64,000 nucleotides of DNA from Leptobrachium leishanense (Eukaryota; Chordata; Amphibia; Anura; Megophryidae), in assembly GCA_009667805.1 (NCBI GenBank), contig CM019071.1, forward strand, positions 50,916,101 through 50,980,100, read 5' to 3'. A program made the position numbers and the translations under genes. The notes under the pieces are model-generated. The model was not told where the DNA came from, made no database searches, and saw nothing but the letters and a program-made list of their open reading frames with translations. Positions 1 through 64,000 of the stretch are shown piece after piece; the stretch's first letter is position 1; the number at the start of each line of letters is the position of its first letter.

Positions 1-983
1 ATGTTTAATCATCTGCAGCGTGTAAAGTGTTTTTTTTCACATGAACATTTGCGGTTATATTTTCTATGGGTTGCGCTTGTACAAAAATTAGAAATGTGGA
101 CTTATTAAATTTTTGGGGGGGAATTATGTGACTTTTAGCAAACGCACACCATAGAAAAAAATCATTAGTGCAGCATCATTGTTCACATTATAATTGAAAT
201 GTGAACAATATTGCTGCATTAATAAAAATAACACAAAAAAAAATACATGTTTTTTAATTTTTTTACTTTATACCTGGTCAAGTTCAGGCCTTTCGATTGA
301 CACTCTCCATGACCCCCTAGCTGCCATGGTTCTGGAGATATCGGGGTTTAATTGAACCCCCTATCTCCACCAGGGGATTCCGGGCAGCTAGGGGTTCCCC
401 CGGCTATCTGACATCATCACTCTATGCGTGAGGACATCAGGCAGTGAGGGGGGACCCGGGGGTGGAGCCGCCATCCAAGATGGCGGCCCTCACCGGAGTT
501 AGGCCGCACTTCGGCGACACAAGGCGCTGAAGTGCGACCCGGTGCCTAAGGGGTTAAAGCCAGGCACCGCTTAAAAGGGGACTCTCCCCTTTTAAGCGGT
601 GCCTGGCTTTTTTTTGTGGGACCTCCCGACCGGGAGGGAGAGGGATCCGAACGGATCCCCCCTCCCTTCCAGGCGACCTCCCGGCATTGCCGGGGGCAGG
701 GCCAGCGCAAGGTGGCACAGGCGGCCGCCTTACTATCTGGCTTCCTGCCAGTTTGTGGGGTCGGAATTCCCCAGCCCTGAGCGGCGCCACCTTGGTCGGC
801 CGGGGAGACCGGGCGCAGCGCTAGGGGCCGAACCACCTGACCAGCGCCGCTCGCAATCTCGCGAGAACGCGGCTGCGCTGGTCATGTGGTTCCCGCCCGG
901 GGATCGGCAAAGCTGCATCATGTCAGCGGCCACTCACCACCATGAGGATCGCCGGCGAAGCCTGGGGGGCCTGGCAGCAGGTG

Positions 984-1615
984 AGAGCTGGGGGCAGATA
1001 TATCCATATGTGAGCTGGGGCAAATATCTCCATATCAGCTGGGGTAATATATACCCATGTAATCTGGGGGCAAATATATCCATGAGTTGGGGGCAAATAT
1101 ATTCACATGTGATCTGGGGGCAAATATATCCATGAGTTGGGGGCAAATATAACCATGAATTGGGGGCAAATATAAATATATCCATGAGCTGGGGCAAATA
1201 TATCCATGAGCTGGGGGCAAGTATATACACATGTGATCTGGGGGCAAATATATCCATGAGTTGGGGCAAATATAACCATGAATTGGGGGCAAATATAAAT
1301 ATATCCATGAGCTGGGGCAAATATATCCATGAGCTGGGGGCAAGTATATCCACATGTGATCTGGGGGCAAATATATCCATGAGTTGGGGCAAATATATAT
1401 CCATGAGCTGTGGGCAAATATATCCATGAGCTGGGGCAAATATATCCATGAGTTGGGGGCAAATATATCCATGAGTTGGGGCAAATATATATATATATCC
1501 ATGAGCTGGGGGCAAATATATCCATGAGCTGGGGGCAAATATATCCACATGTGGTCTGGGGCAAATATACCCATATGAGCTGGGGGCAAATATTTCTATA
1601 GGAGCTGGGGCAATA
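984..1615 (+). repeat. Minisatellite, about 22-26 bp unit, inside hAT C1
   Basis: The unit is about GAGCTGGGGGCAAATATATC plus CAT, repeated roughly 25 times with variants such as ACATGTGATCTGGGGG. The array resumes at 3643-3755 after the L2 insertion, so the LINE landed within it. The same unit in reverse complement occurs at 43725-43910. Long antisense open frames here result only from the repeat lacking stops and are not called as genes. Confidence 0.9.
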
Positions 1616-1689
1616 TATATTATTATTCTTTATTTATAAAGCCCCAGCATATTCCGCAGCGCTGTACAATAAGCACAGTATAGACAGGG

Positions 1690-2304
1690 TTACAATACAT
1701 TGAACAACATTTGACAAACAGTACAGGAGGAGATGAGGGCCCTATTCCCGTAGGAACTCACAATCTGGGAGGGTTGGGGTTGGAAACAGGAGGAGAGGAC
1801 TGTAAGGTGAGAGTGATTGATGGTTGCGTCAGTGAGTTGGGGGTAGGCTTCCCTAAATAGGAATGTTTTAAGGGAGCGTTTGAAGGAAGAGAAGTTAGGG
1901 GAAAGTCTGACAGTACGAGGGAGAGCGTTCCAGAGAGTGGGGGCTGCGCGTGAGAAATCCTGCAGTCTATCATGGGAAGAGGTGATGCGGGGAGAAGCTA
2001 GGCGCAGGTCACTGTTTGACCTTAGGGAGCGGGCTGGGGTGTATTTGGTGATTAGTGAGGACAGGTAGTGGGGCGCTGAGTTAGTGAGGGTTTTGTAGGT
2101 AAGGATAAGGATTTTGAACTTAATTCTGCAGTGGATGGGGAGCCAGTGAAGGGACTCGCAGAGGGGAGCGTCAGAGACAGAGCGGCGGGTGAGGTGAATT
2201 AGCCTGGCGGAGGCGTTCAGGATGGATTGTAGGAGGGAGAGGCGGGACAGAGGGAGGCCAGATAAGAGATTATTGCAATAGTCGAGTCGGGAGATTACCA
2301 GGGC
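1690..2304 (-). pseudogene. L2 LINE reverse transcriptase, C-terminal fragment
   Basis: The minus-strand translation contains ALVISRLDYCNNLLSGLPL, LHWLPIHCRIKFKILILTYK and FSRAAPTLWNALP in order. These are the conserved post-RT motifs of L2/CR1-group LINE ORF2 proteins. The frame opens where the solo LTR interrupts it and ends shortly before the LINE tail. Endonuclease, catalytic RT core and start are absent, so this is a dead 3' fragment. Confidence 0.85.
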
Positions 2305-2309
2305 GTGTA

Positions 2310-3442
2310 TGTCAGGTGCTGGTTCTGGGGTGGTAGGATTGAGCCCAATATGCAAGAAGGGAAACAGAGATTCAGATAAACATATACAAGAGAGGGTTTA
2401 TTTGGAGTAACATAAAGGCAATAAACAAATATATCAAGGAGCTGGATAAGAGGAGGAAGGGAAGACACTGAATATATATATTAAACAGTAACAGATTAAC
2501 TGAAAGCAAGATGAGAAAAGAGTAAACAGAAGGATAGTACTAAGCTACTCTAAACTATAAAAGGAGACAATATGAGAATGATGGCGAAGGAGATCGTTAG
2601 AAAAAATAGAAAACAATGGCAGAAGAGTCTTGGCAGGCAGAGGGTCTTGGGCTTGTAGGGGTTCCTGGGAATGCAAGGCAACGGGCTGAGGATTCTGCGA
2701 GATGCAGGGCAGCAGTTCCGAGGATTCTGTGGGATGCAGGTACAGAGGGCAGCAGACTGAGGATTCTACGAGATGCAGGGCAGCGGGTTTCGAGGATTCG
2801 GCAGCGGGCTGAGGATTCTGCGAGATGCAGGTTGAGGATTCGGCAGCGGGCTGAAGATTCTGCGAGGTGCAGGGCAGCAGGCTCCGAGGATTCTGTGGAA
2901 TGCAGGTACAGAGGGCAACGGGCTGAGGATTCTGCGAGGTGCAGGGCAGCAGGTTGAGGATTCGGCAGCGGGCTGAAGATTCTGCGAGATGCAGGGCAGC
3001 AAGCTCCGAGGATTCTGTGGAATGCGGGTACAGAGGGCAACGGGCTGAGGATTCTGCGAGGTGCAGGGCAGCAGGCTGAGGATTCTGCAAGGTGCAGGGC
3101 AGCAGGTTGAGGGTTCGGCAGCGGGCTGAAGATTCTGCGAGATGCAGGGCAGCAAGCTCCGAGGATTCTGTGGAATGCAGGTACAGAGGGCAAGAAAATA
3201 CTGGAGGAGACAAACCAGATTAAGGTTCTAGGCAGGAACAGGAGGTAGCTCCCTGTCAGCTTGGTATTCACCAAGGCATTGCAGAAGCAAAGTTACTTGG
3301 GTGCGGTTTGGCTTTATGCAGGGAGCATCAGATGAATTAGGCAACACCTGAGTGTTGCAGAGGAGAGTCCTGAGAGTCTTAGTACTACGAGGTGGCGCTA
3401 GAATTTAGGCTTTTTACGGTGCTGGCGTCTCGGGGCATTACA
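2310..3442 (-). mobile_element. Solo LTR with internal minisatellite
   Basis: The block starts TGTCAGG and ends GGGGCATTACA, giving TG...CA termini. It is flanked by an exact 5-bp duplication GTGTA at 2305-2309 and 3443-3447. It interrupts the L2 reading frame exactly at these points. A minus-strand AATAAA at about 2397-2402 suggests minus orientation. No internal gag or pol sequence is present, so this is a solo LTR left after recombination. It is unusually long because of a tandem array at 2676-3190. A shorter LTR with similar ends and a similar AATAAA context lies at 27786-28367. Confidence 0.8.
2676..3190 (+). repeat. Tandem repeat inside the solo LTR
   Basis: Units built on GGGCTGAGGATTCTGCGAG, GCAGGGCAGCAG and CCGAGGATTCTGTGG alternate in a higher-order pattern. 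Open frames on both strands through this array come from the low-complexity unit and are not genes. Confidence 0.85.
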
Positions 3443-3642
3443 GTGTATGAGTTGTTTTGTGGTGTCAGCGGTAAGAAATGGCCGAATTGTGGAAATATTA
3501 CGCAGCTGGTATCGGCAGGAGGAGGAAAGAGACTGGATGTGGGGGATGAAGGAAAGAGCAGAGTCAAGTGTAACTCCAAGACAGCGAACTTGGTTTGATG
3601 GGGAGATGGTGATACCCTCCACCGTGATAGAGAAGTCAGGAG
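3443..3642 (-). pseudogene. L2 LINE reverse transcriptase, fragment upstream of the LTR insertion
   Basis: The minus-strand translation contains VRCLGVTLDSALSFIPHIQ and LRNISTIRPFLTADTTKQLIH. This is the segment that normally comes just before the SRLDYCN motif of L2 RT. The reading continues logically across the LTR to 2304, so both blocks belong to one LINE copy. The fragment begins at the 5' truncation of the element. Confidence 0.8.
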
Positions 3643-4140
3643 GTGTACCCATGTAATCTGGGGGCAAATATATCTACATGTGATCTGGGGCAAATATATC
3701 CACATGTGATCTGGGGGCAAATATAACCATATGAGCTGGGGCAAATATACTTATATATACACACTAGGGTTGCTCATATATGTGTATATATAGAGATTAT
3801 CATGGCATCTCTATCCTGATTGGCTTGACATGACATGGATGGGGGGGGCACCAAAATGCACCTTCGCCTGACTAGATAAAAATGCTTGCATCGGCCCTGG
3901 CCGGGGGTCGCCTGGAAATGACATCATCGCGCATGGCGCGATGACGTCATTTACGTCAGGAGGAGCTTGACTTCAGCATCTGAGGATGCTGAAGTCAGAA
4001 CGCCGCGGGACCCCGGGCAGAGAGGTGAGTATCTCCGCCGGGGGTCCCGCAAAGCTGATGACGTGTGAGACACGTCCTCCTCAGCATACAGCGGGAGTAA
4101 CTGAGGACGTGTCCCACATACGTCGTCAGCAGTGAAGGGG

Positions 4141-4566
4141 TTAAAAATGTCTTTTTTTAAACTTTTTGTCCTTGTTTCCCGTCCCCCAGGGCACTACCCA
4201 GACATTGTTTTTAAATGTTTCTATAAATCCTAGAAATCCGCCACTTCACGGGCAGGTTATGGGGACCCCCTAGGCACGATATTTGAAGGAATTTTTCGCT
4301 TTTATTTTTAACCCTTATTTCATGGAAAACTCACTGTCCTTTTAAAAACTTTTTTTTTACTTTTTGTCCTGGTTTCCTGTCCCCCAGGGCCCTACCCGGA
4401 CCCCCATACACCTTTTATGGCAAATATCCACCATATATGCCTTCTTGGAGGGCACTCTAAAAATTGAACATTGAGTCCCATTGATTTGTATTGAGTTCGT
4501 GTTCGAACTTTTGAAAAGTTCGAGTTCGAATGCGAACCGAACTCAGGGGTGTTCGGCTCATCCCTA
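4141..4566 (+). mobile_element. hAT element B, terminal part (rest lies upstream of the window)
   Basis: The block ends GTTCGGCTCATCCCTA, the TAGGGATGAGC terminus of the BED-finger hAT family seen in full at 29767-37226. Its sequence matches 29767-30120 in reverse complement. The TTAA element 1-4140 is inserted in it. The 8 bases that follow (ATCTCCAG, 4567-4574) also serve as the duplication of the next hAT. Confidence 0.75.
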
Positions 4567-24549: not shown

Positions 24550-25830
24550 TTAACCACTTCAATGCTAAGGACGCGCTCAGCGCGTCCTCAGCATTACCGC
24601 TGGTGTGCTGAGGACGCGCTGAGCGCGTCCTCACATTGGGGTCAGCGTTCGGCCGGGTTCCGGCCGATCGCTGGCCCCTCCGGTGCGGGCTGACATCCTG
24701 GATGTCAGCCCGGCATCCGGACCAGCAGCCGCCATTATTAGGTGTCATCGCGGGGGCGCGATGACACCTAATTCAGGCGCCCCCCCGCATGTGCGGAGGA
24801 GGCGCCTGAAAGGGAGGAGGGGAGGTCCTTCGGACCTCTCTCCCTCCCGATCGGCGGCGCACAGGGGGTTAACCCAGGCATTATTTGGAAGGGCACAGCC
24901 TGCCCTTCCAAATGATGCCTGGCATTAACCCCTGGGGAGCTGGATAGCAAATCGGCGCTGAAAAGTGCCTATTCGCGATCCTTCCCGGGAGCTGGCCGAC
25001 ATCTTGGATGTCGGCCAAGCCTCCTGGAACTCCCCCAGAGGACTGGCGTCATCGTGCGTAGCACGATGACGCCAGTCCTACAGTTAACCCCTAACTGCCA
25101 CCAACTGTGGAGATAGGGAGTTCCAATGAACTCCCTATCTCCCGATCCGTGGCAGCTAGGGGTTAAATTTTGATATCGTTGGATCGGCCAGAGCATGGCC
25201 GTTCCATCGATACCAAACATGAAAGTTAAAAATGTTGTAAAAAAATAAAATAAAGAAAAATAAAAAAAAAAAAAATTAAAAAAAAAATAAATAAATAAAA
25301 AAAAAAAAAATTAAAAAAAAAAAAAATAAATAAAAAAATAAACACTTTTTTTTCTTTTTTTTGGGTTTGTTAATGCAGCAATATTGTTCCCATTTCAATT
25401 ATAATGTGAACAATGATGCTGCACTAACGATTTTTGTATGCGGTGCGTTTGTTAAAAATAGTGTCATTTTCCCCCAAAAAAAATGTAACGAGACCCCATC
25501 TCTAATTTTTTTAACAAGCGCACCCCATACAAAATATAACCGCAATTGCTCACATGTTAAAATGTGGAAAAAAACACTTTACACGTTGTAAATTATTGAA
25601 AATACATATTTTATTGCATTTTTTGTTATAATATACAGACATGACATAACGTATACATATAATAATGACATATTATGAATCTACCGAGTCTGACGGAAAG
25701 AACGATATATAATATGTCGGTGTCATATACTAAAATAAGCCTTCAAAACACGTTTAAACATGATGCGCAAAACAGGTAAAAAATGACCTCAGCACAGGGG
25801 CGGGAAAAGCCTCAGCAGCGAAAAGGTTAA
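24550..25830 (+). mobile_element. Non-autonomous TTAA element, family A copy 2
   Basis: Bounded by TTAA (24550-24553, 25827-25830) with ends CCACTTCAATGCTAAGG and CAGCAGCGAAAAGG. The left half is a series of hairpins; the right half is AT-rich with poly-A stretches (25230-25345). No transposase. The layout matches 58320-59556 closely, with scattered decay in some stems. Confidence 0.82.
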
Positions 25831-43929: not shown

Positions 43930-44140
43930 TGGGCAGATCCTGCTGCGGCCGCCGCGTTCCTTCGTACCACGAGCGGCAGCCTCGTGAGTATCTGACGCTC
44001 GCCTGGGATCCACCCTCCAGCCTACCGCGGTCTCGCGAGATCACGTGATCTCGATCGCAGCAGGCTGGAGGATGGATCTTAGGCGAGCGGCAGATACTCA
44101 TGCGGCTGCCGCTCGTTGAAGGAACAAACGCGGCGGCCGC
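43930..44140. repeat. Large GC-rich hairpin in hAT C2
   Basis: GCGGCCGCCGCGTTCCTTCG, CGAGCGGCAGCC and GAGTATCTG on the left pair with their complements at 44080-44140, around an interrupted loop with CTCGCGAGATCACG. Arms are about 80 bp with some mismatches. Confidence 0.7.
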
Positions 44141-44280
44141 ACGATCTGCCGGTGCCGCATAAAAAAATAGTGCAGAGCGCAGCAGCGGTGCCGGGGGCTG
44201 AAATTTGCCGCCCCCGAATTTCTGCCCCCTGGCGCCGCTGCTCCACTCTGCACCATTGTCGGGCCGGCCCTGCCCTCCCT

Positions 44281-52361: not shown

Positions 52362-54768
52362 TTAACCACTTGGCTGCTATGGACGCGCTCAGCACGTCCA
52401 GCCAAGTGGTTCTCCTGTGCTATGGACGCGCTGAGCGCGTCCATGCACAGGAGGCAGCAATCTCCCGGATGTCAGCCCAGCACTCGGGAACCCGGCGGAG
52501 CAATTAGATGTCATCGCGGCGGCGCGATGACATCTAATTCAGGCGCCCCCCCCCGCATGTGCGGAGGAGGCGCCTGAAAGGGATGGGGGGAGGTCCTTCG
52601 GACCTCTCTCCCTCCCGATCGCCGGGGGGGCAGGGGGTTAATACAGGCACCGTTTGGAAGGGCACAGCCTGCCCTTCCAAACGGTGGCTGTGATTAACCC
52701 CTGGGGAGCCGGATCACGAATCGGCGCTGAAAAGCGCCGTATCGTGATCCTCTCCTGGAGCTGGCCGACATCTTGGATGTCGGCCAAGCCTCCAGGAACT
52801 CCCCCTGAGGACTGGCGTCATCGTGCATAGCACGATGACGCCAGTCCTGGAGTTAACCCCTAGCTGCCACCAATGGTGGAGATAGGGGGTTCATTGGAAC
52901 CCCCTATCTCCCGATCCATGGCAGCTAGGGTTTAATAATTGATATTGTTGGATCGGCCAGAGCATGGCCATTCCAATGATACCAAACATGAAAATGAAAA
53001 CTGTTTTTTAATAAAAATAAAAAAATAAAAATATTTAAAAAAAAATTCTAAAAAAAAAAAAAAAGTTTCTTTGTTTTGTTAATGCAGCAATATTGTTCCC
53101 ATTTCAATTATAATGTGCACAATAATGCTGCACTAACGATTTTTGTATGCGGTGCATTTGTTATAAATAGCAAAATTTTCCCCCCAAAAAAAAGTAACGA
53201 GACCCCATCTCTAACCTTTTTAACCCCTTAATGACCCCTGACGTACTCTGTACGTCCTGTCCTCGGGTCTCCCTTAGACCCGCGGACGTACAGGGTACGT
53301 CAGCGGCGCCAAATCCCCCTCCCGCCCGATACTCACTTCCCTCGTCGGATCCCATGGCGATCTGGCAGGGAGGAAGCCTGCCCATGTGATTTACATGGGC
53401 AGGCGAGGCTGATGACGTCGCCACGCTGCGTGGTGACGTCATCAGAAGGTGCCCCCATGTAATTCAATGGAGGGGAGGGGGGGCTCCTTCGGAGCCCTCT
53501 ATCTCCCCAACCATTGAAGCTAGCAAAATGCTTTTTGCACCGCTGAAAAGGGGAGAGTCTCCCCTTTTCAGCGGTGTATAGCATTAACCGTTTCGCCGCC
53601 GGATCGCGTTTTAGCGCGAATTTGCGCCAAAACGCGATTCGAACCTGGAGGGGGGCTGACATCTTGGATGTCAGCCTAGCCTCCAGGTCCCCCCCCACCC
53701 ACTGACAACCTCACCATATGTGTGAGGATGTCAGTGGGCCAGTTAACCCTCTAGCTGCCATGTAGAGATAAGGGGATCCTAAGGATCCCTTTATCTCCCG
53801 ATCCATGGCAGCTATATGGTAATATTTGACATCATTTGAAAGGCCTGATCATGGCCTTTCAAATGATACCAAACATGACCAGGTTTGGTTTTAAAAAAAT
53901 ATTTAAACAAAAAAATAATAAAAAAAAATAATAATAAAAAAATTAAATAAAATAAAAAAATTTGTTTTTTTTAAAAAAAAATTTTGTCTGGGGGGGTTTA
54001 ATTAAATAGGACCTAGGCTGACATCTCAAAATAATTAGCACAAAATGGTCAGAATGAGCGCAGCGCACATAGGTGAACTGCCTCAGCAGTGAAAGGGTTA
54101 AAAGGTAAAAACATGTAAAAATTGGGTATTTCTATTATCGGGATAAAATTTGGAAACTATTTAGCCGGGGTCTTTATTGGTGGTTATAGCTTTAGGGGAT
54201 TAAATTACGAAAAAGTGTGTTTTTACCATTTTATTTCATATTTTATTTATATTAAATTATTGGATATGATGGAAATAATGGTATTTCTAGAAAGTCCATT
54301 TAATGGCGGGAAAAAGGGTGTATAATATGTGTGGGTTGAATAAACGAGTAAGAGGAAAATTTGACCTAAACCCTAACAGCGCAGAAACGTAAAAACAGCA
54401 GCGGTCACTAAAGGACAGATTTGTATAAAACCGCCCGGTCACTAAGGGGTTAACAAGCGCACCCCATACAAAATATAACCGCAAACGATCGCATGTTAAG
54501 ATGTGAAAAAAAACACTTTACACATAATAAATTATTGAAAATTCAAATTTTACTGCATTTTTTGTTATAATATACAGACATGACATAATGTATACATATA
54601 ATAATGACATATTATGAATCTGTAGAGTCTGCCGGAAAGACCGATATATAATATGTCTGGGTCTAATAAAAAAAATGGCTACAAAACGCGGTTAAACATG
54701 ATGAGCTAAAACCGGTAAAAATGACCTCAGCACAGAGGTGTGAAAAGCCTCAGCAGCGAAAGGGTTAA
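52362..54768 (+). mobile_element. Non-autonomous TTAA element, family A copy 3, with nested TTAA element
   Basis: TTAA at 52362-52365 and 54765-54768. Left end CCACTTGGCTGCTATGG, right end CAGCAGCGAAAGGG. Hairpins tile 52366-52985. Sequence is then AT-rich until 53219, where a second TTAA element is inserted; family A resumes at 54454 with AACAAGCGCACCCC. Stem sequences differ from 58320-59556 by paired changes (see findings). Confidence 0.85.
53220..54453 (+). mobile_element. Nested TTAA element, family B, composite structure
   Basis: TTAA duplications at 53220-53223 and 54450-54453. Ends CCCCTTAATGACC and GGTCACTAAGGGG are near-perfect inverted repeats. An internal family-A-like end, CCTCAGCAGTGAAAGGG plus TTAA, lies at 54081-54101. 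The part to its right (54102-54449) matches 60504-60860 in reverse complement. The left part has its own hairpins (for example about 53540-53575). It appears to be a recombinant of two TTAA families. Confidence 0.75.
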
Positions 54769-55394: not shown

Positions 55395-56007
55395 GCATTT
55401 CACCGCTGTGTGCTCATGCTCAGCTCATTTTTACCGCTTTCGCTCATCATGTTTAAGCACGATTTTGAAGCCACATCTTATTAAATGACCGAAATGTTAG
55501 ATATCGTTCTTTCCGGCAGACTCCGCAGATTCATAAAATATCATTTTTATATGTATACGTCCTGTCCTGGCTGTATATTATGAAAAAAATGCAATAAAAA
55601 TTGAATTTTTAATCATCTGCAGTGTGTAAAGTTTTTCTTTTTCACATTTTAGCACATGAGCGTCTGCGGTTATGTTTTCTATAGGGTGCGCTTCTACAAA
55701 AATTAGAAATGGGGACTTGTTACATTTTGTGGGGGGAATTACGTGATTTATAGCAAACACACCCCATAGAAAAAAATCATTAGTGCATCACCGTTCACAT
55801 TACAATTGAAATGTGAACAATATTGCTGCATTAATAAAAATAACACACATAAAAAAATACATGGTTTTTTTTTTTTTTACTTTATACCTGGTCATGTTGG
55901 GTATCATTCGAAAGGCCATGCTCAGGCCTTTCGATTGACACCCTCCATGACCCAATAGATGCCTGAAGATATCGGGGTTCAAATGAACACCCTATCTCCA
56001 CCAGGGG
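55395..56007 (-). mobile_element. Family A fragment
   Basis: Matches the AT-rich half of family A in reverse orientation (CACATTACAATTGAAATGTG, AATATTGCTGCATTAATAAA) and resembles positions 1-360 most closely. Both termini and the hairpin region are missing. Confidence 0.65.
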
Positions 56008-56061
56008 ATTGGCCTGTGCAATATATATACGCATGATGTGAGCTGGCCTGGGCAATATATA

Positions 56062-57677
<1,616 letters not shown>

Positions 57678-58319: not shown

Positions 58320-59556
58320 TTAACCACTTCGCTGCTGAGGACGCGCTCAGCGCGTCCTCAGCAGTCCCGCTGGTGTGCTGAGGACGCGCTGAGCGCGTCC
58401 TCCCATTGGGGTCAGCGTTCGGCCGGGTTCCGGCCGATCGCTGGCCCCCACGGTGCGGGCTGACATCCTGGATGTCAGCCCGGCATCCGGACCAGCAGCC
58501 GCCAGAATTAGGTGTCATCGCGGGGGCGCGATGACACCTAATTCAGGCGCCCCCCCCGCATGTGCGGAGGAGGCGCCTGAAAGGGAGGGGGGGAGGTCCT
58601 TCGGACCTCTCTCCCTCCCGATCGGTGGCTCTGCGGGGGTTAACCCAGGCATCATTTGGAAGGGCACAGCCTGCCCTTCCAAATGATGCCTGGCATTAAC
58701 CCCTGGGGAGCTGGATCGCGAATCGGCGCTGAAAAGCGCCGGTTCGCGATCCTTTCCCGGAGCTGGCCGACATCTTGGATGTCGGCCAAGCCTCCGGGAA
58801 CTCCCCCAGAGGACTGGCGTCATCGTGCGTAGCACGATGACGCCAGTCCTAGAGTTAACCCCTAACTGCCACCAACTGTGGAGATAGGGAGTTCCAATGA
58901 ACTCCCTATCTCCAGATCCGTGGCAGCTAGGGGTTAAATTTTGGTATGGTTGGATCGGCCAGAGCATGGCCGTTCCAACGATACCAAACATGAAAGTGAA
59001 AAATTTTGTAAAAAAGGAAAAATAAAAATAAAAAAAAATTAAAAAAAAAAATTAAAAAAAAAAAAATAAACACTTTTTTTTATGTTTTTTGGTTTGTTAA
59101 TGCAGCAATATTGTTCCCATTTCAATTATAATGTGAACAATGATGCTGCACTAACGATTTTTGTATGCGGTGCGTTTGTTAAAAATAGTGTCATTTTCCC
59201 CAAATAAAAATGTAACGAGACCCCATCTCTAATTATTTTAACAAGCGCACCCCATACAAAATATAACCGCAATTGCTCGCATGTTAAAATGTGGAAAAAA
59301 ACACTTTACACATTGTAAATTATTGAAAATACAGATTTTATTGCATTTTTTGTTATAATATACAGACATGACATAACGTATACATATAATAATGACATAT
59401 TATGAATCTACCGAGTCTGACGGAAAGAACGATATATAATATGTCTGGGTCATATACTAAAATAAGCCTTCAAAACACGTTTAAACATGATGCGCAAAAC
59501 AGGTAAAAATGACCTCAGCATAGGGGCGGGAAAAGCCTCAGCAGCGAAAGGGTTAA
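58320..59556 (+). mobile_element. Non-autonomous TTAA element, family A copy 4 (best preserved)
   Basis: TTAA at 58320-58323 and 59553-59556. Ends CCACTTCGCTGCTGAGG and CCTCAGCAGCGAAAGGG are inverted repeats. Hairpins occupy most of 58332-58945, and the remainder is AT-rich. No coding sequence. It splits a LINE reading frame exactly at a TTAA inside a Phe-Lys codon pair. Confidence 0.9.
58332..58945. repeat. Hairpin-tiled region of family A copy 4
   Basis: Consecutive hairpins: 58332-58364, 58380-58402, 58420-58436, 58456-58482, 58506-58543, 58544-58579, 58594-58610, 58646-58692, 58713-58752, 58755-58800, 58810-58850 and 58880-58913. The last sits inside an outer pair, CCCCTAACTGCCAC with GTGGCAGCTAGGGG. 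Most stems are 8-18 bp with short loops. Almost all of the interval lies in one of them. Confidence 0.88.
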
Positions 59557-60499: not shown

Positions 60500-63400
60500 T
60501 TAACCCCTTAGTGACCGGGCGGTTTTACACGAATCCGTCCGTTCGTGACCGCTGCTGTTTTTACGTTTCTGCGCTCTTAGTGTTTAAGTCAAATTTTCCT
60601 CTTACTCGTTTATGTAACCCACACATATTTTACACTGTTTTTCTCGTCACTAAATGGACTTTATAAAGATACCATTTTTTTCATCATTTCATATAATTTA
60701 CTATAAAAAATATTGTGAAATATGACACAAAAATTGAAAAAACACCACTTTTTCGAACTTTGACCGCCAAAATTTCTTATGTATCAACAACCGTCAAAAA
60801 AAATTAATTCTTTAGTAGTTTCTAAATTTAGTACTGAGTTTAGCAATACCCAATGTTTACATATTCCTCGCTTTTTTCCTTATTTTATGCAACAATAAGT
60901 GCAAGTAGCACTTTGCCATTTCCAAAGAGTTTATTTTCAAAACTAGTGATAGTGACATTGTAACACTGATATCTGTCACTAATTCCTGAAAAACCCTCCA
61001 CATATACATATTTTTTTAAAGTACACAAATCAAGGTATTAAACTTGGGGTATTTTGACTCTTTCCATGCAAACCATTTTACCACAAATCTATGCCAAAGT
61101 TTGAGAAAAAAAAAAATTTGGTGATTTTTTTTTTTTGAACGCAATTTAAGAATACATGTACTGTGAACTTTAAGGTTTACTGCCAAAAAGCACCCCAAAA
61201 TATGTTCAGCAACATCTTCTGAGTAAATTGATACCACCCAAGTATAGGTATGTCGGGTCATTTGGGGGCTAAAAGGCCTTATTTGGGGGGTGCGCATTTC
61301 AGTTTTCCAACTTGGAATTTTCACATTTCGTCATCATGCACCCATGTCCTATTTGGGACATTTTTGAAGCCGGCCAAAGTAATTTACCCCCATCAAACCA
61401 TATATTTTTAGAAAGGGCACACCCTGGGGTGCTTCAAAGAGTTGTATTTTAACACTTTCCATGCACTAGCTCTATGTCAAACTTTCAGGTAGTCACTTTT
61501 TGTGTTATTTTTTACACACATTGTACTTTAGGCATGAATTGTCAAATCCAGTTATGGGTTACTGCCAAAAAACACCCCAAAATATGTTCAGCAACATCTT
61601 CTGAGTAAATTGATACCACCCATGTATAGGTATGTCGGGTCATTTGGGGGCTAATAGGCCTTATTTGGGGGGTGCGCATTTCAGTTTTCCAACTTGGAAT
61701 TTTCACATTTCGTCATCATGCACCCATGTCCTATTTGGGACATTTTTGAAGCCGGCCAAAGTAATTTACCCCCATCAAACCATATATTTTTAGAAAGGGC
61801 ACACCCTAGGGTGCTTCAAAGAGTTGTATTTTAACACTTTCCATGCACTAGCTCTATGTCAAACTTTCAGGTAGTCACTTTTTGTGTTATTTTTTCACAC
61901 ACATTGTACTTTAGGCATGAATTGTCAAATCCAGTTATGGGTTACTGCCAAAAAACACCCCAAAATATGTTCAGCAACATCTTCTGAGTAAATTGATACC
62001 ACCCATGTATAGGTATGTCGGGTCATTTGTGGGCTAATAGGCCTTATTTGGGGGGTGCGCATTTCAGTTTTCCAACTTGGAATTTTCACATTTCGTCATC
62101 ATGCACCCATGTCCTATTTGGGACATTTTTGAAGCTGGCCAAAGTAATTTACCCCCATCAAACCATATATTTTTAGAAAGGGCACACCCTAGGGTGCTTC
62201 AAAGAGTTGTATTTTAACACTTTCCATGCACTAGCTCTATGTCAAACTTTCAGGTAGTCACTTTTTGTGTTATTTTTTCACACACATTGTACTTTAGGCA
62301 TGAATTGTCAAATCCAGTTATGGGTTACTGCCAAAAAACACCCCAAAATATGTTCAGCAACATCTTCTGAGTAAATTGATACCACCCATGTATAGGTATG
62401 TTGGGTCATTTGGGGGCTAATAGGCCTTATTTGGGGGGTGCGCATTTCAGTTTTCCAACTTGGAATTTTCACATTTCGTCATCATGCACCCATGTCCTAT
62501 TGGGACATTTTTGAAGCCGGCCAAAGTAATTTACCCCCATCAAACCATATATTTTTAGAAAGGGCACACCCTAGGGTGCTTCAAAGAGTTGTATTTTAAC
62601 ACTTTCCATGCACTAGCTCTATGTCAAACTTTCAGGTAGTCACTTTTTGTGTTATTTTTTCACACACATTGTACTTTAGGCATGAATTGTCAAATCCAGT
62701 TATGGGTTACTGCCAAAAAACACCCCAAAATATGTTCAGCAACATCTTCTGAGTAAATTGATACCACCCATGTATAGGTATGTCGGGTCATTTGGGGGCT
62801 AATAGGCCTTATTTGGGGGGTGCGCATTTCAGTTTTCCAACTTGGAATTTTCACATTTCGTCATCATGCACCCATGTCCTATTTGGGACATTTTTGAAGC
62901 CGGCCAAAGTAATTTACCCCCATCAAACCATATATTTTTAGAAAGGGCACACCCTAGGGTGCTTCAAAGAGTTGTATTTTAACACTTTCCATGCACTAGC
63001 TCTATGTCAAACTTTCAGGTAGTCACTTTTTGTGTTATTTTTTCACACACATTGTACTTTAGGCATGAATTGTCAAATCCAGTTATGGGTTACTGCCAAA
63101 AAACACCCCAAAATATGTTCAGCAACATCTTCTGAGTAAATTGATACCACCCATGTATAGGTATGTCGGGTCATTTGGGGGCTAATAGGCCTTATTTGGT
63201 GGGTGCGCATTTCAGTTTTCCAACTTGGAATTTTCACATTTCGTCATCATGCACCCATGTCCTATTTGGGACATTTTTGAAGCCGGCCAAAGTAATTTAC
63301 CCCCATCAAACCATATATTTTTAGAAAGGGCACACCCTAGGGTGCTTCAAAGAGTTGTATTTTAACACTTTCATGCACTAGCTCTATGTCAAACTTTCAG

Positions 63401-64000
63401 GTAGTCACTTTTTGTGTTATTTTTTCACACACATTGTACTTTAGGCATGAATTGTCAAATCCTGTTATGGGTTACTGCCAAAAAACACCCCAAAATATGT
63501 TCAGCAACATCTTCTGAGTAAATTGATACCACCCATGTATAGGTATGTCGGGTCATTTGGGGGCTAATAGGCCTTATTTGGGGGGTGCGCATTTCAGTTT
63601 TCCAACTTGGAATTTTCACATTTCGTCATCATGCACCCATGTCCTATTTGGGACATTTTTGAAGCCGGCCAAAGTAATTTACCCCCATCAAACCATATAT
63701 TTTTAGAAAGGGCACACCCTAGGGTGCTTCAAAGAGTTGTATTTTAACACTTTCCATGCACTAGCTCTATGTCAAACTTTCAGGTAGTCACTTTTTGTGT
63801 TATTTTTTCACACACATTGTACTTTAGGCATGAATTGTCAAATCCAGTTATGGGTTACTGCAAAAAAACACCCCAAAATATGTTCAGCAACATCTTCTGA
63901 GTAAATTGATACCACCCATATATAGATTTGTTCTGTTGTTTTTGGGGTGCTACGCCAATCTTTGACATGTGCTTGTCAATTTTCTAATTTGACATACAGT
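60500..64000 (+). mobile_element. TTAA element, family B copy 2, continuing past the window
   Basis: Begins TTAA then CCCCTTAGTGACCGGGCGG at 60504, the same end as 54449 in reverse. The first 350 bp match 54102-54449. From about 61160 the element is a tandem array. The far end is outside the window. No transposase frame was seen. Confidence 0.75.
61160..63925 (+). repeat. Tandem array with 383-bp unit, about seven copies
   Basis: The marker GGCATGAATTGTCAAATCC occurs at 61531, 61914, 62297, 62679, 63062, 63444 and 63827, giving spacings of 383, 383, 382, 383, 382 and 383. Units are almost identical. Each contains GCAACATCTTCTGAGTAAAT and GGTGCGCATTTCAGTTTTCC. The final unit diverges after 63920. 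It has no open frame of note. Confidence 0.95.

What the first reader, a model, noticed from the sequence alone, without database searches (positions are those of the whole stretch)
58320..59556. Hairpin-tiled TTAA transposon family whose stems covary between copies
In copies 58320-59556, 52362-54768 and 24550-25830 about 600 bp is covered by a dozen or so back-to-back hairpins. Copies 3 and 4 differ by paired changes that preserve pairing. Stem 8: ATCATTTGG/CCAAATGAT versus ACCGTTTGG/CCAAACGGT. Stem 9: GATCGCGA/TCGCGATC versus GATCACGA/TCGTGATC. Stem 10: TCCCGGAG/CTCCGGGA versus TCCTGGAG/CTCCAGGA. Stem 12: AGGGAGTT/AACTCCCT versus AGGGGGTT/AACCCCCT. Stem 2: GAGGACG/CGTCCTC versus ATGGACG/CGTCCAT. 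This is the pattern expected if structure is maintained, either by selection (for transposition, replication or an RNA product) or by mutational copying of one arm from the other. I do not know of a described TTAA family with this architecture, but I cannot search.
Basis: partly seen in the sequence, partly recalled or inferred. Interest (0 to 1): 0.85.

Follow-up and report, generated by a model that had tools for sequence, protein, structure and literature searches.

The report
Frog piggyBac transposons tiled with hairpins
A jumping-gene family in a toad genome carries a row of about a dozen DNA hairpins whose two arms change together in the lineage that still spreads but decay independently once a copy has landed, which suggests that the folded DNA itself matters to the jumping gene.

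Summary
The three named copies carry a row of near-perfect hairpins (stem cover 0.58-0.76; shuffles below 0.09), and all five quoted paired differences are present. These are non-autonomous piggyBac elements in a toad genome, very probably Leptobrachium leishanense. They insert at TTAA. Their ends resemble those of an element that encodes an open piggyBac transposase and is itself hairpin-tiled on the left.

Across nine subfamily representatives, 63 of 256 stem pairs covary (slid controls 7-11). Pairing is kept only in the lineage that goes on spreading: between two subfamily consensuses 16 pairing-preserving double changes against 14 one-sided; in 71 landed copies 7 against 360 (p = 2e-15). 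Host-wide arm copying at the rate needed would have left about 58. Mismatches already in the source pass through transposition unrepaired: 0 of 340 cells in three subfamilies, 4 of 110 at one site in a fourth.

G.T and A.C mismatches are about equal, so the constraint looks DNA-level. Six transposase ORFs also exceed synonymous shuffles in hairpins. Best reading: selection in cis for hairpin-forming DNA. Rare copying tied to transposition is not excluded. Function is untested.

The parts
58320..59556 (+). Copy A, complete non-autonomous piggyBac element with TTAA at both ends
58332..58988 (+). Hairpin array of copy A. Stems at 58332-58364, 58380-58402, about 58408-58448, 58456-58482, 58505-58544, 58542-58581, about 58584-58620, 58645-58693, 58713-58752, 58754-58800, 58810-58850, 58855-58937 (inner 58879-58914), 58940-58988
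   Evidence: the two 'about' stems are placed by eye
58991..59556 (+). A/T-rich right half of copy A, with weaker, imperfect inverted repeats (stem cover 0.24) and the right terminal repeat
24550..25830 (+). Copy B, complete, 92.8% identical to A; hairpin array about 24562-25217
52362..53223 (+). Copy C, left part with its hairpin array
54450..54768 (+). Copy C, right part, beyond the nested element
53220..54453 (+). Nested chimeric element N in copy C, given here with the TTAA on both sides (53220-53223 and 54450-54453); copies A and B show the site with one TTAA. Its left and right ends are of the L079 type; a second, A-type right end lies inside at 54081-54101
1..700 (-). Copy E, middle and right part, cut by the window edge; divergent subfamily with homologous covarying stems
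3881..4144 (-). Copy E, left end with terminal repeat; separated from the rest by other repeats at about 700-3880
55416..56012 (-). Copy D, truncated right part of a related element, beside a Tc1-like reading frame

Best explanation
These are non-autonomous members of the piggyBac superfamily. They carry, between the left terminal repeat and an A/T-rich right half, a row of about a dozen near-perfect DNA hairpins that autonomous relatives carry too. Shown here: family membership, the shared array, covariation between subfamilies, and its near absence in landed copies. Inferred: source copies are under selection in cis to keep both arms complementary, because hairpin- or cruciform-forming DNA at the left end helps the element to be mobilised or amplified (for example by shaping the left end for transposase assembly, or by tying excision to replication). 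Copies that have landed are released from this and decay one arm at a time.
For: Membership: TTAA on both sides of 38 of 40 copies. The L080 element has a left end resembling that of the MITEs, a matching right end and an open 606-aa transposase with PF13843 and PF13842; piggyBat 9c0f is the best PDB match. Covariation: 63 of 256 pairs over nine subfamily representatives in 12 of 12 helices, slid controls 7-11; A2 to C1 16 double Watson-Crick changes against 0-1 in slid controls, A2 to N 45 against 4-9. Active versus landed: 16 paired / 14 one-sided against 7 / 360, p = 2e-15; one-sided stem changes against loop changes 14/16 between consensuses and 227/81 among landed singletons, p = 0.003. 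Landed copies: non-CpG singleton rate 0.0049 in stems and 0.0067 in loops, p = 0.06. Mismatches present in the source are passed on unrepaired. G.T about equals A.C. The four non-autonomous subfamilies examined (A, C, E, N) keep the array. Six of six ORFs read exceed synonymous shuffles in hairpins; 9 of 10 other coding-like pieces of the window have none, one has 0.03.
Against: No assay exists here. Hairpins inside the transposase ORF sit at different places in different lineages (0 of 13 shared between L079 and L080) and change mostly one-sidedly there (L080 to L096: 18 one-sided, 2 paired; L079 to L098: 9 one-sided, 0 paired), which selection on particular hairpins does not predict. Three of the 16 paired A2-C1 changes lie where C1 folds differently, and 5 of 16 touch a CpG. 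For distant pairs many double changes do not pair (A2 to N 45 pair, 22 do not; N to E 12 and 11). Arm copying at under about 1% per mismatch per transposition could also give the pattern. The consensuses stand for few active lineages, so independent events are fewer than pairs. The passenger group shows a small excess of paired changes (6 seen, about 1.6 expected). In piggyBat, subterminal left-end DNA restricts transposition rather than helping it (PMC11707139, passages read).
Confidence: 0.5

Rival explanations
1. Arm copying coupled to the element's own life cycle: during excision, repair or amplification a polymerase occasionally copies one arm from the other, so active lineages accumulate perfect stems without any benefit.
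For: Strict Watson-Crick pairing with no clear wobble bias; stems rebuilt as blocks, such as the second arm in C-type copies that complements 13 of their first 15 bases (52364-52376 with 52399-52411); hairpins also in the ORF at lineage-specific places; loop inversions, a footprint of template switching (PMC8794818, abstract and passages read).
Against: Mismatches already in the source are restored in 0 of 340 cells over 44 copies of A1, A2 and C1, and in 4 of 110 cells at a single site of N. The T.G state of L038 and L039 at one pair suggests a stepwise route. The right part of the same elements has far fewer hairpins.
Confidence: 0.27
2. Host-wide template switching at hairpins in ordinary replication keeps any palindrome perfect.
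For: Loop inversions also occur in landed copies, such as L025, L030 and a passenger subclade. Template switching is reported to create and mend hairpins (PMC8794818, abstract).
Against: The rate fitted between subfamilies predicts 58 paired changes in landed copies; 7 were seen (P = 3e-17). Ten coding-like pieces of other repeats in the same window have almost no hairpins.
Confidence: 0.04
3. The stems are kept for an RNA: a structured transcript, small RNAs from the stems, or mRNA structure of the transposase.
For: In the two autonomous loci the array lies upstream of the ORF, and the ORF itself is hairpin-rich. A count of single mismatches inside consensus stems gave 24 G.T and 18 A.C, a slight lean towards wobble.
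Against: Inside and beside stems G.T and A.C are about equal: 32 and 36 in left ends, 19 and 18 in ORFs; an RNA would tolerate G.U over A.C. Stem cover with G.T allowed against A.C allowed was 0.060 and 0.055 (L080), 0.066 and 0.052 (L096), but 0.033 and 0.103 (L079), so no consistent sense-strand lean. Non-autonomous copies without a gene keep the array. No Rfam match at gathering scores.
Confidence: 0.1
4. The palindromes are double-stranded binding sites for a dimeric protein, such as the cysteine-rich domain of the transposase, not structures.
For: In piggyBac this domain binds a palindromic 19-bp internal repeat as a dimer (PMC7351741, passages read).
Against: The stems differ in sequence from each other and change between subfamilies while still pairing, which a sequence-specific site would not allow.
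Confidence: 0.09

Closest known systems
piggyBac superfamily, relatives of the amphibian Uribo/TxpB elements
   Same: TTAA duplication, short terminal repeats beginning CC, DDE_Tnp_1_7 plus C-terminal zinc finger; the L080 transposase is 54% identical to Xenopus tropicalis Uribo2 over 83% of its length.
   Different: A covarying hairpin array of about 620 bp at the left end. I recall palindromes near the ends of Xenopus piggyBac vectors, but no call showed it.
piggyBat of Myotis lucifugus
   Same: Closest solved transposase, E 4e-72; the three catalytic aspartates align. Its left end also holds subterminal elements that affect activity (PMC11707139, passages).
   Different: In the passages read those elements are a few transposase-binding motifs and one site is inhibitory; no hairpin array is mentioned there.
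CMITE, piggyBac-related MITEs of Acropora corals (PMC2872659, abstract and section list read)
   Same: Non-autonomous elements linked to piggyBac; an internal region more conserved than the ends.
   Different: No hairpin array or covariation in the part that I read.
T2-MITE / Kolobok of Xenopus
   Same: TTAA elements of frogs (the TTAA duplication is recalled), recent activity and long life (PMC6004289, start of abstract).
   Different: A different transposase superfamily; a term search of PMC6004289 found neither 'hairpin' nor 'palindrom'.

Membership tests
piggyBac superfamily | TTAA target duplication | tested here: met
   38 of 40 A-family copies TTAA on both sides; L018 TTAA/CTAA, L031 CTAG/CTAG. 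Nested N against the site in A and B.
piggyBac superfamily | Transposase with DDE_Tnp_1_7 core and C-terminal cysteine-rich domain in an element with the same ends | tested here: met
   L080: ends like the E and A families (left by BLAST, right by eye), PF13843 308 bits, PF13842 31 bits. L079: right end of N, same domains.
piggyBac superfamily | Three catalytic aspartates | tested here: met
   Align with those of piggyBat 9c0f in the printed alignment (D237, D309, D413 named in PMC11707139; the PDB chain is numbered 6 higher). Checked for L080 only.
piggyBac superfamily | Precise, footprint-free excision | not testable with these tools
   Needs an excision assay or population data.
MITE (non-autonomous derivative) | Short, no transposase gene, ends of an autonomous element, many copies | tested here: met
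   About 1.2 kb; 3317 first-look candidates for A, of which 40 were scored; ends shared with L080. Mobilisation by L080 is inferred.
Structured RNA family | Wobble-tolerant covariation on one strand, or a match to a known family | tested here: not met
   G.T about equal to A.C (leans slightly to G.T); Rfam none in window, L001, L079, L080.
Already described repeat family (Repbase/Dfam) | Match of consensus or terminal 17 bp | not testable with these tools

The most novel reading that the evidence does not exclude
A eukaryotic cut-and-paste transposon in which DNA folding itself is a selected, heritable trait of the whole element: a left-end array of cruciform-capable hairpins kept by compensatory change in the active lineage, and extra hairpins written into the transposase gene through codon choice, strictly Watson-Crick and therefore acting at the DNA level.
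Probability: 0.4. Interest if true: 0.87.

Novelty: new variant of a known kind. Interest (0 to 1): 0.72.

Why it matters
Compensatory change is usually read as proof of a functional RNA. Here it appears in a DNA transposon, without a clear wobble bias and only in the lineage that keeps spreading. With thousands of candidate copies in one genome, active and landed lineages form a natural experiment that can separate selection for DNA folding from template-switch copying of arms, a question open for palindromes generally. If the array helps transposition, it would add an unsuspected cis-requirement to piggyBac, a widely used gene-delivery tool. If instead the transposition cycle copies arms, that would be a new mutational mechanism.

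Tried and rejected
Searches of viral contigs and genome contigs for conserved right-half patterns found nothing. Rfam: nothing at gathering scores. Time-homogeneous arm copying: rejected. RNA with wobble: no clear asymmetry. CpG coincidence as the whole explanation: rejected, since 5 of the 16 paired A2/C1 changes touch a CpG in either sequence. The transition share of paired against one-sided changes was looked at by eye and did not discriminate. Literature: papers on hairpin, piggyBac, MITE, palindrome and frog terms were sought; none of the titles and abstract starts listed describes such an array. That is not proof that none is in print: only the starts of abstracts are shown, and most subscription journals and Repbase Reports are not held.

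Rows dropped: of 31 sequences extracted from 29 C-type loci (L042-L070; L041 is the window's own C), four were left out before (L042m, L045m, L060m, L060p: ends misplaced or a second copy in the locus) and L054 was used singly. A-family L017, L018, L023, L027, L038, L039, L040 and B were not put in the A1 or A2 groups. Of 15 N copies, 11 entered the counts (L083, L088, L094, L095 left out). Of the E consensus from 8 loci only the part from about the fifth hairpin rightwards was used, because several have another repeat at the 5' side. One search also left out homopolymer runs and gappy columns.

Full report
What is there. The window lies in a 3.54-Gb genome, contig C9. Contig C4 is 394,693,044 bases, equal to the 394.69-Mb scaffold N50 reported with 13 pseudochromosomes and 3.54 Gb for the toad Leptobrachium leishanense (PMC6895153, passages read). 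The best protein relative of the L080 transposase is also from Leptobrachium (80% identity over 89%). The species is therefore very probable, by inference.

Copies A (58320-59556), B (24550-25830) and C (52362-53223 plus 54450-54768) carry stems over 0.76, 0.59 and 0.58 of their left halves, against at most 0.09 in 50 Markov-1 resamplings each. Copy A against copy C has 13 paired, 21 one-sided and 1 non-pairing double change; copy A against copy B has 0, 16 and 1. Copy C is split by element N (53220-54453 with both TTAA), whose insertion duplicated a TTAA that stands once in A and B. More divergent copies E and D are also present.

What it is. Forty best copies of A in the genome (3317 first-look candidates, 40 scored) are 92-100% identical to A. 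Thirty-eight of 40 have TTAA on both sides; L018 has TTAA/CTAA and L031 has CTAG/CTAG. A search with PF13843 gave 10,295 candidates; 116 were scored, and 110 of these have no stop inside the match. Two of the loci were read in full. L080 with L081 is a 5445-bp element whose left end starts TTAACCCTTTCGCTGCTG (77.6% identity with the E-type copy L078 over 85 columns) and whose right end matches the E and A families by eye; it encodes 606 aa. L079 is a 4954-bp element whose right end matches that of N (83.5% over 273 aligned columns) and which encodes 571 aa. Both proteins have PF13843 and PF13842, and L080's is closest in the PDB to piggyBat, with the catalytic aspartates aligned. So A, B, C and E are non-autonomous piggyBac elements, presumably moved by an L080-type transposase. 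N has ends of the L079 type around an A-like interior.

The array is a feature of the autonomous elements too. Stem cover is 0.60 in the left 707 bp of L079 and 0.39 in the left 460 bp of L080, but 0.03 and 0.09 in their right parts; shuffles of these four stretches averaged at most 0.017 with maxima up to 0.06.

Covariation. Consensus sequences of subfamilies A1 (22 copies), A2 (11), C1 (11) and CP (16) fold with 280, 281, 284 and 269 pairs in 690 bases. On an alignment of nine representatives (A1, A2, L038, L039, L040, C1, L054, N, E), 63 of 256 stem pairs have two Watson-Crick types that differ on both sides, with at least two such pairs in each of the 12 helices; with the partner slid by 1-3 columns the number is 7-11, and Watson-Crick cells fall from 91% to 25-29%. 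The structure came from the same sequences, which favours it; the double-change count is less affected. A2 to C1 has 16 such changes (slid 0-1), A2 to N 45 (slid 4-9), A2 to E 24 (slid 1-4), N to E 12 (slid 0-3). Against this, 22 double changes from A2 to N and 11 from N to E do not pair, and at these distances many double changes are expected by independence alone (40 and 10). Three of the 16 A2-C1 changes (columns 40/63, 48/55, 49/54) lie where C1 folds differently, and 5 of 16 touch a CpG.

Active against landed. A landed copy evolves as host DNA; a subfamily consensus approximates the source that kept spreading. In 71 landed copies (A1 22, A2 11, C1 11, N 11, and 16 CP copies that share near-identical flanks and so were amplified as passengers inside another repeat) 17,577 pair cells show 360 one-sided changes, 7 double changes that keep pairing and 1 that does not; about 3.8 doubles are expected by independence. 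Six of the 7 are in the passenger group (about 1.6 expected there); in the listing, made with a slightly different fold, three of its seven lie in the A/T-rich tail and the other four are CG-to-TA or GC-to-AT. Between A2 and C1 the numbers are 16 and 14 (16 and 15 on another alignment); Fisher p = 2e-15. Non-CpG singleton rates in landed copies are 0.0049 in stems and 0.0067 in loops (p = 0.06), so stems are hardly constrained after landing. One-sided stem changes against loop changes are 14 to 16 between the consensuses and 227 to 81 among landed singletons (p = 0.003).

Is it arm copying? A model in which a mismatched pair is repaired from the other arm at a constant rate, fitted to A2-C1, predicts 58 double changes in the landed copies; 7 were seen (P = 3e-17). 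Mismatches present in the subfamily consensus were then followed into the copies: 0 of 340 cells restored in A1, A2 and C1, 0 of 95 in the passengers, 4 of 110 in N, all at one site. Each A1, A2, C1 and N copy has its own insertion site and so has presumably been through at least one transposition, which puts copying below roughly 1% per mismatch per jump. A lower rate, summed over many jumps of the source, is not excluded; I give this 0.27. Loop inversions do occur, also in landed copies: loop 12 CCAATG to CATTGG in C and in one passenger subclade, CATCGG in L025; loop 11 GTA to TAC in L030 and L038. So the hairpins do take part in template-switch-like events, but rarely. One pair (columns 358/392) is C-G in C1 and L040, T.G in L038 and L039 and T-A in A1 and A2, a stepwise route.

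RNA or DNA? If one RNA strand were selected, G.U would be tolerated over A.C. Inside and beside stems of left ends there are 32 G.T and 36 A.C; in ORFs 19 and 18 (some left-end rows are related, so not independent). A narrower count of single mismatches inside consensus stems gave 24 and 18. Constraint, or copying, at the DNA level fits better.

Hairpins in the transposase gene. Six ORFs (L079, L080, L096-L099; three lineages by identity) have stem cover 0.107-0.172; 40 synonymous-codon shuffles each reach at most 0.023-0.048. Of ten other coding-like pieces in the window, named as transposon genes by eye, nine have none and one 0.03. Positions are shared between close ORFs (10 of 13, L079/L098), less between L080 and L096 (3 of 8), and not between L079 and L080 (0 of 13). 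Changes there are mostly one-sided: L080 to L096 18 one-sided and 2 paired, L079 to L098 9 and 0. So hairpin content is favoured or generated element-wide, but individual ORF hairpins come and go. This is unexplained by a fixed function of each stem and is the main reason for keeping the copying rival high.

How it may work. Shown: the array is common to the two autonomous and four non-autonomous types examined, sits on the left, is kept in active lineages and is lost nearly neutrally after landing. Inferred: it acts in cis at the DNA level for mobilisation or amplification. Published work shows an asymmetric piggyBac complex and subterminal left-end DNA that changes piggyBat activity (PMC7351741, PMC11707139, passages read); in piggyBat that DNA is inhibitory, so the array could also restrain transposition. 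No measurement here decides between these.

Limits. One genome; 40 scored copies per DNA query; consensus rows stand for few lineages; no Repbase or Dfam; no expression data; no assay.

Noticed in passing
53220-54453; L082-L095: Element N is a chimera: L079-type ends outside, an A-type right end inside at about base 880. Copy L083 ends at the inner end with TTAA on both sides, as if mobilised with one end of each type.
   Followed up: partly
L031: An A-family copy flanked by CTAG on both sides instead of TTAA, an apparent insertion at a non-canonical target.
   Followed up: no
L052, L055-L059, L061-L070: Sixteen C-type copies share near-identical flanks: one insertion was carried and amplified inside another repeat. 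It served as a control for unselected decay.
   Followed up: partly
L079:2194-3909, L080:2147-3967, L096-L099: piggyBac transposase ORFs are themselves rich in 9-22 bp hairpins, far above synonymous-codon shuffles, at lineage-specific places.
   Followed up: partly
PF13843 search of the whole genome: Of 116 scored piggyBac transposase matches (10,295 first-look candidates), 110 have no stop inside the match, suggesting very recent or current activity in this genome.
   Followed up: no
61170-63931: Tandem array with a period of about 383 bp, units about 98-99% identical.
   Followed up: no
43944-44141 and 44166-44257: Two long imperfect inverted repeats (about 200 and 92 bp overall), G+C rich, not recognised as part of the piggyBac family.
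   Followed up: no
56280-57326: Open Tc1/mariner-like reading frame of 348 aa (named by eye) between copies D and A.
   Followed up: no
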